The notes under the pieces were generated by a model that saw only the letters and a list, made by a program, of their open reading frames with translations, searched no databases and was not told where the DNA came from. A DNA stretch of 64,000 nucleotides, taken from contig NC_049995.1 of the NCBI RefSeq assembly GCF_000003815.2, forward strand, positions 15,719,163 to 15,783,162. Reading direction: 5' to 3'. Positions within the stretch are counted from its first letter, which is position 1; the number at the start of each line of letters is the position of its first letter. Shown here one piece after another: positions 10,440 through 60,205 of this stretch. Source of the stretch: Branchiostoma floridae (lineage: Eukaryota > Chordata > Leptocardii > Amphioxiformes > Branchiostomatidae). The translations under genes and the position numbers were made by a program.

Positions 10440-11666
10440 CACTGATCCATCAGTTGCTGGTTGTAATGTCTCTTTCGTGTTTTTGTTTTTCTTCAAGCTT
10501 GATGAAATTGTCAAATACTGGATACTACTACTTGGTGACATCCATTTTAAGTGTACTTTCAAGCAACGGGAAACTTCTTTATGATATATCTGAGGGAGTA
10601 AAACGTTAACATCAATCCTAGGCAATTGATTGTGATGTTTCTCCCTTGCTTTTGTGTTAATGGACACTTTCAAGTGATGGAAAATCTTGTTTTTGACTGA
10701 TTGTAATGTTTCTGTGTTTTTTGTGTTCCCAGAGCTGCATTTTCTCTTTTGGGAATACCTTTTTTTACGTATCTGACTGAGAAATCAACAATTAATCCTT
10801 TGGCCATTTATTGTAATATTTCTTCCGTGGTTTTGTGTTCCTCCGAGCTAGGTGAAGGCCGTTGTTAAGTGCATTTTCTCTTTTGTCTTCGGGAATAGTA
10901 CCTTCTTTTACATATCTGACACTGAGGAAGCAACAATCCATTTGTGATTGATACATGATTGTTTCTCTCCTGTTTTTTTCATTCCTTGGAGCTACATTTG
11001 TAGGTGAAGGCTGCTTTTAAGTGCACTCTCTCTTAAGCAATAGCTAATATTTTTTACATATCAGCGGGAACAACGATCTCTTCAAGCAGTCGATCAATTG
11101 TTACAATGTTTCTCTGGTGTTTTGATGTTGCTCAAAGCTCAGTTAGAACCCTACTTAAGTGCACTTCTCGTGTCTTGAGGAATATCTTCTCGTGTCTTGA
11201 GGGGGCATCTTCTCTGGGTAGTTTTAAAGAACGCTTGCAGATAGATGTGCAAAAGTTAGGGGTAACGAGTCATTCGGTGTAATATAACCAGCTGCTGCCG
11301 CGCCGCGTGCATGCAAATCTGGTGTGTTATGCCAAACGGCGGTTATACCGGCTATATAGATACAGATACAGATCTTCTTTGTATCTAAGGGAATACCGGT
11401 ACCAATCTTTTGGCCTTTGATTGAAATGTTTCCCTTGCATTGTGTTTTTGTGCTCATCAAAGCTCAGTTAAGATTAAAAATCAAAATATGTCTTTTGTTA
11501 CCATATTTTTACTAACTGTAATGTTCCTTCTGTGTTTTTTATCCTCAGAGCTCGGTGAAGACTCTGTTCAAGTGCACATGACCGCTCCCTCTTATAGGAA
11601 TAGCTTTTTTATTACCCTTTGTCGGCTGATTGTAATGTTTGCTTTGTTTGTTTTTTTTATCCTCAG
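10440..11666 (+). repeat. Array of decaying copies of the C-clamp gene exon-1 acceptor edge
   Basis: Upstream of the real exon at 11667, the block of pyrimidine tract, CTCAG, then exon start (AGCTCGGTGAAGAC... AAGTGCAC) recurs. One near-perfect copy starts at 11549. Progressively worse copies lie near 11455, 11130, 10985, 10845, 10727 and perhaps 10490. Each is preceded by a version of ATTGTAATGTTTCT and followed by versions of TTTACATATCTGAC. Units are roughly 100-150 bp with some irregular spacing. Confidence 0.75.
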
Positions 11667-58500: not shown

Positions 58501-60205
58501 TATAGAACAGGTAAGTCACGCTGCAGTCTCTACAGCAGCTGATCCAGTGGGTGGGAGACTTCACGCTATACTTGCTGTCTCTGCTGCCCACACAGCAAGG
58601 TCAGTATAGAACAGCAAGGTCAGTATAGACCAGCAAGGTCATTATAGAACAGCAACATCACAATATAGCACAGCAAAGTCACTCTGAAGCCTCTACAGCA
58701 GCTGATACAGTGGGTGGGCGACTTCACACTGTACCTGCTGTCTCTGCTGCCCACACAGCAAGGTCAGTATAACACGGCAAGGTCACGCTGTACCTGCTGT
58801 CTCTGCTGCCCACACAGCAAGGTCAGTACAACACAGCAAGGTCACACAGTACCTGCATTCTCTGCTGCCCACACAGCAAGGTCATGCTGTACCTGCTGTC
58901 TCTGCCGCCTACATAGCAAGGTCAGTATAACACGGCAAGTCTGTCTTACACAGTGTGAGCTGCTATAAGCGAGATGTAATCAGGCTACCTTGCCCCCCTC
59001 CCCCTCAGGTATGCCTAACCATGTTGGCTTGACGCTCCTACGTGACGCCCAGTTCCTACAGATGTTACGTGAGCTGCTATAAGCAAGATTTAATCAGGCT
59101 ACCATGCCCCCCTCCCCCTCAGGTATGCCTAACCATGTTGGCTCGACCTTCCTATGTGACGCCCAGTTCCTACAGATGTTCCGAGAGCTGCTGTTGACGG
59201 TTCGGATCTGGGGCGGGCTGCTATAAGCGAGATTTAACCAGGCTATCTTGCCCCCCTCCCCCCTCAGGTATGCCTAACCGTGTTGGCTCGACCCTCCTTC
59301 GTGACGCCCTATTCCTACAGATGTTACGAGAGTTGCTGGTGATGGTTCGGATCTGGGGGCTCATCAAGTCCAGCTGTCTCCCTGTCTTCACCGCAACCTC
59401 AGATAACCTGGACAGCCTCCAGCTGCTGTTTAAGCTGCTCACCAAGGCCTGGATGTGTGCTAAAGAGGAGAGGCTTTCCAGTGGTGGGTTTTCTTTTATT
59501 TATTTTGCATAGGTAAATTGCCTTTAGATGATATTCTAGTTTTATTCACAAATTATGAAGCTGTGTAAGACCAGGCTATGAGGTTTGATCCACTGACACT
59601 GGAAAGGACCCCTTTGCTTTTTAAATAGCTCAAGGTGTGGCTCTCCTCAAATATTGGATTTGCAACTTAATGTCCCATCCGGGGAGATGTTTCTAATCAA
59701 AGCTAGGTACGTGTAGTAGTCAATTCCACATAAGTCAAGTGAGGAAATAGGTGTTATGTGTCTTTCCCAATTAGTGCACATCATAGGGGCCTTGTTTAGG
59801 TTCCATTTCAACAACCCCTACCACCTTCCAAGTCTTCACAGTGTTGTGGGCTGTTAAGGAGGAGAAGCTCTCTAGTGGTGGTCTGTTTTGTAGGATTTTT
59901 ACCCTTCATGGTTTGCTTTCTTCTTTCCTATACCTCTAAAAGTTCCTTTAGAATGATCTCGAGCCTTTGGAATGTGACAACTCAGAAACACACAGACAGA
60001 CAAAAGGGCACACATCTACATGTAGTGTTTATTAATGGCTGAATCTTAATGTTTTATTTTTTCTAGACTGGGATGACTCCCTGGTAGACGAGTGCTGCCT
60101 GCTGCCCAGTCGAATGCTGGTGCCCAACCTGGACTCTCCACCCCCCGCAGAGGGAATAATGGCACGACCCCAGAGCAAGCAACCAATCCTGGTGCAAGTT
60201 GGGAA
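49518..60205 (+). CDS. MED16: Mediator complex subunit 16, N-terminal ~742 residues (3' exons absent)
   Basis: Tail-module subunit of Mediator, linking activators to RNA polymerase II in the nucleus. Ten coding exons join in frame: 49518-49640, 50584-50735, 52443-53061, 53312-53571, 54163-54418, 55894-56051, 57091-57251, 57593-57736, 59268-59483 and 60067-60205. All have AG/GT borders. Landmarks shared with vertebrate MED16, compared from memory, include the SEWEK start, [13 protein letters not shown], a WD-type segment ending [78 protein letters not shown] and [10 protein letters not shown]. The N-terminal half is the beta-propeller and the second half is helical. The last visible exon ends in phase 2 before the cysteine-containing C-terminal domain, about 110-135 residues short of human length. 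Those exons are probably beyond 64000. Partial copies of exons 1, 2 and 5-9 sit in neighbouring introns. It is head to head with SDR copy 3. Confidence 0.94.
49641..50013 (+). repeat. TTG microsatellites with two copies of MED16 exon-1 end plus donor
   Basis: Copies at about 49695-49797 (GAG TAG in place of GAG TGG) and 49969-50013. Both end GCAG|GTAGGTG like the real exon (49640). TTG repeats lie between. Confidence 0.88.
50736..51531 (+). repeat. TTAG microsatellite array with long and short copies of MED16 exon-2 end
   Basis: Long copies at 50853-50930 (78 nt), 50983-51060 (78 nt) and 51458-51531 (74 nt) have an AG in front and GT after. Short copies (GGAACACAGCTACTGTCTGC plus GAGAG|GT) lie at about 50793, 51118, 51200, 51289 and 51371. 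TTAG repeats separate them. Confidence 0.9.
52075..52390. mobile_element. hAT-like MITE family D, copy 2 (inverted), in MED16 intron 2
   Basis: Inverted relative of 10109-10437 with the same GGTGCACCC motifs and the shared central segment. Its right end (GTGCACCTAATCCC) lies about 50 bp before MED16 exon 3. Confidence 0.75.
53205..53270. mobile_element. MITE family A, truncated copy
   Basis: Left half only (CAGTAGAAGCCAGTTGATTG... then CACAAAATCCCAC), in intron 3 of MED16. Confidence 0.65.
54540..54870 (+). repeat. Short copies of MED16 exon-5 end plus donor
   Basis: Versions of CTGCTGGAGTACTGTATG|GT (the LLEYCM end) recur at about 54567, 54675 and 54843 downstream of the real exon end at 54418. 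Confidence 0.75.
55142..55893 (+). repeat. Array of MED16 exon-6 acceptor edges
   Basis: Repeats of GGTGAAGTCTGCCATCTCTG... acceptor CAG, then exon start. Exon-like copies start at 55208 (about 94 nt, synonymous differences only), 55352, 55649 and 55767. The last two units are 118 bp apart. The real exon starts at 55894. Confidence 0.88.
56130..56318 (+). repeat. Two copies of MED16 exon-6 end plus donor
   Basis: CAGATCCACCTCACCA... TTATACAG|GTGAG at 56133-56181 and 56268-56318, about 137 bp apart, downstream of the real exon end at 56051. Confidence 0.88.
56640..56900 (+). repeat. Tandem ~130-bp repeat containing a MED16 exon-7 edge copy
   Basis: Blocks containing GCGATCACTACAGAG.ATGG and TCAAAGTAGCAAT recur. 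One carries CCCCACAG|ATTGACCAATA (56790), the first 11 nt of exon 7 (real start 57091). Confidence 0.7.
57900..58930 (+). repeat. ~122-bp tandem array of MED16 exon-8 end plus donor
   Basis: Full-length copies of the exon-8 tail (CTGCAGTCTCT... CAGCAAG|GTCAGT) begin near 57902, 58024, 58147, 58269, 58517 and 58680. Shorter ones lie at about 58785, 58850 and 58880. Spacers are AGCAAGGTCAGTATAACAC repeats. The first five encode the same peptide as the real exon. Confidence 0.92.
59005..59267 (+). repeat. Two copies of MED16 exon-9 acceptor and start
   Basis: CCCCTCAG|GTATGCCTAACC... at about 59010-59077 and 59124-59215. Each is followed by GCTGCTATAAGC.AGATTTAA, also found as a dispersed repeat near 26218 and 50255. 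The real exon starts at 59268. Confidence 0.88.

What the first reader, a model, noticed from the sequence alone, without database searches (positions are those of the whole stretch)
10440..59484. Exon edges with their splice sites are reiterated into the adjacent introns of all five genes
Seen directly: about twenty arrays in which exon start plus acceptor is copied upstream, or exon end plus donor is copied downstream. Examples include the C-clamp gene (exons at 11667, 14025, 14871), SDR-1 exon 3, SDR-2 exons 2, 3, 4 and 6, EcKinase exon 1, SDR-3 exons 3, 5 and 6, and MED16 exons 1, 2 and 5-9. Arrays always grow from an exon outward into the intron and often carry a microsatellite. Each creates duplicate splice sites. 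From memory, a similar class (mirage minisatellites) was described at amphioxus Adh. Five of five genes in one window suggests a genome-wide process that generates decoy splice sites or new exons.
Basis: partly seen in the sequence, partly recalled or inferred. Interest (0 to 1): 0.9.

Follow-up and report, generated by a model that had tools for sequence, protein, structure and literature searches.

The report
Exon edges copied into neighbouring introns
In what looks like a lancelet genome, short pieces spanning the edge of an exon have been copied in tandem into the next intron, splice site included; this kind of repeat was already known from a few lancelet genes, and here it is unusually dense but patchy across the genome.

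Summary
Confirmed, with corrections. I modelled six genes (C-clamp, SDR1-3, EcKL kinase, MED16) with 61 exon/intron borders. At 21 of 61 (13 donors, 8 acceptors) the adjoining intron holds border-spanning copies, 62 in all, nearly all keeping GT or AG. These are lancelet "mirages", described earlier for Adh3, globins, troponin C and PGBD5: the kind is known.

A process aimed at exon borders is only partly supported. In 33 other scaffolds of the same genome (three conserved gene families) 9 of 215 edges, in 6 scaffolds, carry mirages. So it is widespread but patchy, and this window is a hot spot. Outside it, local duplications hit borders about as often as random placement predicts (9 of 26 against 6.6, P=0.16). 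"Always outward" follows from splicing logic.

Most likely: ordinary local tandem duplication and unequal exchange; copies including an exon edge persist because the exon-joined copy is still used. Similarity to the functional edge falls with distance in 8 of 8 arrays with at least four copies (1 of 8 significant alone).

Unexplained: copies differ from the exon mostly at synonymous sites (98 against 62; about 73 expected for dead copies), and some keep an identical peptide.

The parts
10440..11701 (+). C-clamp/zinc-finger gene, exon 11667-11767: acceptor plus exon start repeated upstream, 6 aligned copies (borders near 11548, 11460, 11135, 10989, 10845, 10495), older copies decayed
14025..14432 (+). 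C-clamp gene, exon 14025-14132: exon end plus donor copied at about 14274, with a (TG)n microsatellite; a second, weak match at +533 is counted
14437..15083 (+). C-clamp gene, terminal coding exon 14871-15083: acceptor plus exon start copied at about 14649 and 14495
25265..25672 (-). SDR1 exon 3 (25523-25672): exon end plus donor copied twice, unit about 127 bp with (CAAA)n
31369..31675 (+). SDR2 exon 2 (31369-31500): exon end plus donor copied once, 164 bp away
32130..32519 (+). SDR2 exon 3 (32237-32386): acceptor copied once upstream (93 bp), donor end copied once downstream (127 bp, with (TTTG)n)
33128..33380 (+). SDR2 exon 4 (33128-33213): exon end plus donor copied once after a (TG)n run
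37728..38344 (-). 53-bp array, 11.8 units, upstream of the EcKL kinase coding exon; units contain CTGTAG|GTAGGACAG, an inferred 5'-UTR acceptor (not verified); 5 copies aligned, 11
43080..43650 (-). SDR3 exon 6: acceptor plus exon start copied once, 422 bp upstream
43971..44296 (-). SDR3 exon 5 (44180-44296): exon end plus donor copied twice, unit about 90 bp with (TTTG)n
46002..46769 (-). SDR3 exon 3 (46178-46327): donor end copied once downstream, acceptor start copied three times upstream
49518..50018 (+). MED16 exon 1 (49518-49640): exon end plus donor copied 3 times (4), with (GTT)n
50584..51534 (+). MED16 exon 2 (50584-50735): exon end plus donor copied 8 times, with (AGTT)n; two copies (50853-50930, 50983-51060) are open 78-nt units flanked by CAG and GT
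54163..54868 (+). MED16 exon 5 (54163-54418): exon end plus donor copied twice, decayed
55137..55990 (+). MED16 exon 6 start (55894): acceptor plus exon start copied 4 times upstream; the outermost copy near 55205 keeps 32 codons with an identical peptide
56005..56330 (+). MED16 exon 6 end (56051): exon end plus donor copied twice, unit 131-136 bp
57593..58940 (+). MED16 exon 8 (57593-57736): exon end plus donor copied 12 times, periods of 19 and 123 bp; five intronic copies encode the identical 28-residue peptide
58955..59900 (+). MED16 exon 9 (59268-59483): acceptor plus exon start copied twice upstream; exon end has one decayed copy about 394 bp downstream

Best explanation
These are lancelet mirages: short local tandem duplications (first copy 67-422 bp away, 90-170 bp at 23 of 29 borders) whose unit happens to span an exon/intron border. 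Shown: borders are copied into the intron, nearly all copies keep the splice dinucleotide, the exon-joined copy is the constrained one, and similarity to it falls with distance. Inferred: after a border-spanning duplication only the copy still joined to the exon can be spliced without breaking the frame, so the other copy becomes intron and can be amplified, shortened or lost by slippage and unequal exchange. Such duplications are therefore tolerated, and the conserved exon makes them recognisable for longer. The genome makes local duplications in many places; some genes and regions, this window included, are hot spots. No dedicated function is needed.
For: Border-spanning copies at 21 of 61 window borders and at 9 of 215 edges of 33 other scaffolds: S3, S4, S11, L044, L053 and four in L058. 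Changes private to the functional exon are 26 synonymous and 2 not, copy-specific variants 86 and 84, so the exon-joined copy is the constrained one. Outside the window duplication clusters straddle borders about as often as random placement gives, 9 of 26 against 6.6; with pair-called borders only, 2 of 110 have a copy of >=24/30 against 69 of 4664 intron positions. Identity falls with distance in 8 of 8 arrays with at least 4 copies, sign test P=0.008, 1 of 8 significant alone. [quoted passage not shown]
Against: Inside the window 18 of 21 clusters straddle a border against 9.1 expected; this may be choice of window, but a local preference for borders is not excluded. One scaffold outside (L058) also has four of its five clusters at borders. 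Differences between exon and copies are more synonymous than dead copies should show (98 of 160 against 73 expected, z 3.9; without SDR genes 63 of 116 against 52, z 2.0). Window donors with arrays more often have a microsatellite within 150 bp on the intron side (6 of 13 against 3 of 17 other donors; acceptors 1 of 8 against 1 of 23; not tested for significance), which hints at a sequence trigger. Assembly error cannot be excluded without reads.
Confidence: 0.72

Rival explanations
1. Exon borders are preferred sites of duplication: a splice site, its neighbouring microsatellite or transcription-linked breakage triggers template switching, so arrays are born there more often than elsewhere.
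For: Window: 18 of 21 clusters straddle a border against 9.1 expected, 0 of 4000 placements. Four of five clusters in L058 are at borders. Microsatellites lie near 6 of 13 donors with arrays but 3 of 17 other donors (no test made).
Against: Other scaffolds: 9 of 26 against 6.6, P=0.16; without L044, 8 of 24 against 5.8, P=0.17; without L044 and L058, 4 of 19 against 3.8, P=0.57. Even in the window 13 of 61 borders and 982 of 4998 intron positions have a copy of >=24/30. The window was chosen because it showed the pattern. Border copies are easier to recognise because one side is a conserved exon.
Confidence: 0.22
2. The copies are not dead: some are used as extra or alternative exons, or regularly swap with the functional edge by unequal exchange or conversion, so coding constraint acts on them.
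For: 98 synonymous to 62 nonsynonymous differences in 25 arrays with differences (one copy each) against 73 expected if copies are neutral. MED16 exon-6 copy: 11 synonymous and 1 nonsynonymous by stepwise counting, identical 32-residue peptide; exon-2 copy: 7 and 0, identical 28 residues. Two intronic exon-2 copies are open 78-nt units, a multiple of 3, flanked by CAG and GT. Splice sites of copies are on average not significantly weaker than the real ones.
Against: Several arrays look dead (C-clamp exon 11667: 6 and 12; MED16 exon 9: 3 and 7), and copy-specific variants are 84 of 170 nonsynonymous. Without the three SDR paralogues, where exchange between paralogues is possible, the excess is weak (z 1.7-2.8 depending on the mutation model). 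No RNA data. Published mirages are reported to leave mRNA normal.
Confidence: 0.15
3. Assembly artefact: alternative haplotypes of a very heterozygous animal were stitched together in tandem.
For: 12 of 29 arrays have a single extra copy, which a stitching error could make.
Against: Copies are tens to about 160 bp apart in most arrays with exon parts cut short, unlike haplotype-sized duplications, and 9 of 29 arrays have three or more copies. Synonymous diversity in B. floridae is about 0.04, well below the synonymous differences of some copies. Re-examined Sanger and new Illumina data confirmed the PGBD5 repeats. MED16 has a single locus here (23 matches, all in the window).
Confidence: 0.06

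Closest known systems
Mirage minisatellites of amphioxus (Adh3; globins BflGb6 and BflGb9; troponin C; PGBD5; retinol dehydrogenase and presenilin papers cited for similar structures)
   Same: [quoted passage not shown] unit lengths reported 10-72 bp (Adh3) and 150-160 bp (BflGb6)
   Different: Here 21 of 61 borders in six neighbouring genes, denser than the cases in the passages I saw; a first count in a sample of other genes; coding-site analysis of the copies. Instability and normal splicing are published for the old cases, not tested here
Intron gain by tandem duplication of AGGT-containing exon sequence (Rogers model, cited; potato RdRp case PMC4974935, seen in search listing only)
   Same: Tandem duplication involving splice-like sites
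   Different: Here the copies lie in introns and the frame is open across the original junctions; no new intron is seen
Ordinary intronic minisatellites
   Same: Similar sizes and local clustering; present in the same scaffolds (17 of 26 clusters in the sample do not touch a called border)
   Different: Do not include exon sequence or a splice site

Membership tests
amphioxus mirage | tandem repeat unit spans an exon/intron border | tested here: met
   21 of 61 window borders, 62 copies
amphioxus mirage | occurs at both 5' and 3' exon borders | tested here: met
   13 donors and 8 acceptors in the window
amphioxus mirage | many but not all copies keep AG or GT | tested here: met
   GT in 40 of 42 donor copies (one of the other two could not be aligned there), AG in 36 of 41 acceptor copies, over 29 borders of window and sample
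amphioxus mirage | found in lancelets | tested here: inconclusive
   513.4-Mb assembly whose contigs seen up to C19 are 17-35 Mb long; that this fits Branchiostoma floridae is recalled; no species marker was tested
amphioxus mirage | copy number varies between haplotypes and somatically | not testable with these tools
   one assembly; no second MED16 locus
amphioxus mirage | regular mRNA splicing is not disturbed | not testable with these tools
   no RNA data
intron gain by tandem duplication | a new intron interrupts formerly continuous coding sequence | tested here: not met
   copies lie inside introns and the frame is open across the original junctions; the age of the introns themselves was not tested

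The most novel reading that the evidence does not exclude
The intronic copies are a living reservoir of exon edges: they keep strong splice sites and protein-coding constraint because they are used as extra exons, or because unequal exchange between diverged chromosomes keeps swapping them with the functional edge. Exon borders in this animal would then turn over by replacement from neighbouring copies.
Probability: 0.14. Interest if true: 0.8.

Novelty: new member of a known kind. Interest (0 to 1): 0.45.

Why it matters
Each array is a natural test of how the spliceosome chooses between two or more near-identical sites of similar strength lying tens to hundreds of bases apart, and a candidate source of new exons and introns. 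Judging only by the passages of two papers I could see, the window is an unusually dense set, and the sample gives a first rough rate (about 4% of edges in three conserved gene families). The synonymous bias of the copies, if it holds, would mean exon edges turn over by exchange.

Tried and rejected
Border enrichment as a general rule: rejected for now, since it is not seen outside the window (8 of 26 against 6.1, P=0.22; 9 of 26 against 6.6, P=0.15-0.16 after hand-set edges). Pair-called borders alone: 55 of 63 candidate introns called, 2 of 110 borders with a copy; not used as the main estimate because the caller needed two adjacent exon hits and missed most mirage-bearing edges; the 215-edge count uses less certain single-edge calls. 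S3 edge 1478 was counted at first and removed after reading: it looks like a dispersed repeat. The S9 cluster was read and not counted. L044 was fetched knowing that it had repeated exon hits; results without it are given. The kinesin and myosin stretches were picked by me as compact genes, not at random; some chaperonin scaffolds belong to one gene. S0, S13 and S14 (long uninterrupted matches) were dropped before counting edges. L058 and L044 edges were set by hand after reading. L001-L008 were not used. Raw mismatch counts by codon position 61/53/176 were set aside because copies of one array are not independent; the test uses one copy per array, the longest. A second haplotype of MED16: none found. 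An earlier count gave 24 borders at >=21/30 with 23 intronward; a recount gives 23 and 22. That allelic diversity alone (synonymous pi about 0.04) is too small for the synonymous excess is a rough estimate of mine, not a computed test. No search found a genome-wide mirage survey; that is no proof that none exists, since most subscription papers, the 2002 Adh paper included, are not held.
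Full report
WHAT WAS CHECKED. The window lies at G000:C17:15719163-15783162 of a 513.4-Mb assembly. Its size and contigs fit Branchiostoma floridae, but that is recalled and no species marker was tested. I read 10.4-60.4 kb and built gene models by hand for a C-clamp/zinc-finger gene, three short-chain dehydrogenases (SDR1 minus, SDR2 plus, SDR3 minus), an EcKL kinase gene lying antisense inside SDR2 intron 4, and MED16: 61 borders in all. 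MED16 and the C-clamp gene are partial. Reading frames stay open across junctions. Of four proteins submitted, Pfam gives Med16_bridge 2e-77, adh_short 6e-52 and EcKL 6e-37; the C-clamp protein had no hit.

With a 30-bp probe centred on each border, 13 of 61 borders have a copy of at least 24/30 and 23 of 61 of at least 21/30 within 1.5 kb on either side; 22 of those 23 lie on the intron side. The same probes against neighbourhoods of other genes never exceed 20/30 in 221 tries. Local alignment on the intron side (score at least 42, spanning the border by at least 6 bases each side) gives 21 window borders with 62 copies, 13 donors and 8 acceptors; in a smaller control made with slightly shorter probes, 118 cross-gene pairs had a 95% score of 31.6 and a maximum of 48, so the weakest copies (MED16 exon 5 and exon 9 donors) are less certain. 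The EcKL array is counted although its acceptor is an inferred 5'-UTR site. Spacing of the first copy is 67-422 bp over all 29 borders with copies, window and sample.

A SAMPLE OF OTHER GENES. I listed exons genome-wide with Pfam families and read 36 scaffolds holding chaperonin (16), kinesin (13) and myosin (7) exons. The chaperonin loci were the 30 best matches; kinesin and myosin stretches were chosen by me as compact genes. Three long-match scaffolds were dropped. In the remaining 33 (174 kb, 215 edges) there are 9 edges with mirages in 6 scaffolds: S3 donor, S4 donor, S11 acceptor, L044 acceptor, L053 donor, and L058 two acceptors and two donors. L044 was picked knowing it had repeated hits; without it 8 of 206 edges. 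With the stricter pair-called borders the count is 2 of 110. The odds in the window are about 12 times higher (Fisher 2e-9). So the phenomenon occurs across the genome but unevenly, and the window is a hot spot: local duplication clusters number 21 in 32.3 kb inside window genes, 10 in 31.7 kb outside them, 26 in 174 kb of the sample and 5 in 48 kb of six arbitrary stretches, of which 9.2 kb are N. Clusters are also unevenly spread among sample scaffolds (P=0.02), L058 alone having five.

ARE BORDERS PREFERRED? I moved each duplication cluster to random places within its scaffold and asked how often it straddles a border. Window: 18 of 21 observed, 9.1 expected, 0 of 4000 placements; 16 of 21 against 8.7, P=0.001, with a stricter margin. 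Sample: 8 of 26 against 6.1, P=0.22, with automatic edges; 9 of 26 against 6.6, P=0.16, after edges were set by hand in L058, L044 and S3; without L044 8 of 24 against 5.8; without L044 and L058 4 of 19 against 3.8. The window result is post hoc. Position by position borders do not stand out either: in the window 13 of 61 borders against 982 of 4998 intron positions (which include the arrays), 33 of 674 exon-interior and 370 of 5627 intergenic positions; in the sample 2 of 110 pair-called borders against 69 of 4664 intron and 24 of 2271 exon positions at the same cut-off. A preference for borders is therefore not established. Outward growth is expected on any model, because splicing at an inner copy would insert intron sequence into the message. 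I infer further that a duplication with one foot in a conserved exon stays recognisable longer than one in two drifting introns.

WHAT THE COPIES LOOK LIKE. Over 29 borders, window and sample, GT is kept in 40 of 42 donor copies and AG in 36 of 41 acceptor copies; the lost AGs are in the oldest C-clamp array. By a simple weight matrix of my own (frequencies recalled) the copies are not significantly weaker than the real sites (donors 8.0 against 8.4, P=0.42; acceptors 7.2 against 8.1, P=0.58; 26 of 43 and 31 of 48 copies equal or exceed the real site). Exon-part identity is 0.90 and intron-part 0.86 (23 arrays, Wilcoxon P=0.02). Identity falls with distance in 8 of 8 arrays with at least four copies, six in the window and two in L058; only MED16 exon 8 is significant alone, sign test P=0.008.

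CODING SITES. Changes private to the functional exon are 26 synonymous and 2 not; variants within copies 86 and 84; unpolarised single columns 36 and 30. The first figure shows which copy is functional. If copies were dead and the exon changed only synonymously, at equal clocks, about 73 of 160 differences should be synonymous under a GC-to-AT-biased spectrum; 98 are (z 3.9). This uses one copy, the longest, from each of 27 arrays with at least 6 codons, 25 of them with differences. Across the three mutation models tried z is 3.6 to 5.1 for all arrays and 1.7 to 2.8 without SDR genes. Outstanding cases are MED16 exon 6 (identical 32-residue peptide with 11 synonymous changes) and exon 2 (28 residues, 7 synonymous); clear counter-cases are the C-clamp arrays at 11667 and 14132 and MED16 exon 9. 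Two intronic MED16 exon-2 copies are open 78-nt units, a multiple of 3, flanked by CAG and GT; five exon-8 copies encode the identical 28-residue peptide. B. floridae synonymous diversity of about 0.04 (PMC12862219, passages) seems too low to supply all of this through alleles alone (rough estimate). For SDR genes exchange between paralogues is a simple explanation: the SDR2 intronic copy encodes the SDR1 version of the peptide. MED16 has one locus in this assembly. I leave this unexplained.

WHAT IS KNOWN. Passages of PMC3087553 describe the same structures in two globin genes, name them mirages after Adh3, mention other loci, report that regular splicing is not disturbed, that two haplotypes have 6 and 3 units, and propose intron gain from them. 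Passages of PMC3902484 add PGBD5 and troponin C. The 2002 Adh paper is not held (one search was a guessed identifier); what I say of it comes from those two papers.

VERDICT. A known kind, confirmed in six more genes at unusual density, with a first rough rate elsewhere. The border-directed or functional reading remains open, not shown.

Noticed in passing
35700-38400: EcKL kinase gene lies on the minus strand inside intron 4 of SDR2 (33213-41366), a nested gene.
   Followed up: yes
41896-42125: Stop codon and C-terminal codons of SDR2 are part of a 45-bp array of about five units in the 3' UTR.
   Followed up: partly
25265-25610 and 32299-32519: SDR1 and SDR2 exon-3 donor arrays share the same TTTG/CAAA microsatellite; the SDR2 intronic copy encodes the SDR1-type peptide, suggesting an array older than the gene pair or exchange between paralogues.
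   Followed up: partly
L058 (G000:C10:21154500-21159000): A myosin gene with mirages at 4 of 6 hand-set edges, including about 22 copies of a 50-bp acceptor unit.
   Followed up: partly
L044:1080-1640: Kinesin exon start with acceptor in three tandem copies of about 150 bp, visible already as repeated profile hits.
   Followed up: yes
   Followed up: no
20450-21400: Stretch that reads like a decayed reverse transcriptase (non-LTR retrotransposon) on the plus strand; judged by eye only.
   Followed up: no
61442-62027: 164-bp tandem array, 3.6 units, outside the genes modelled.
   Followed up: no
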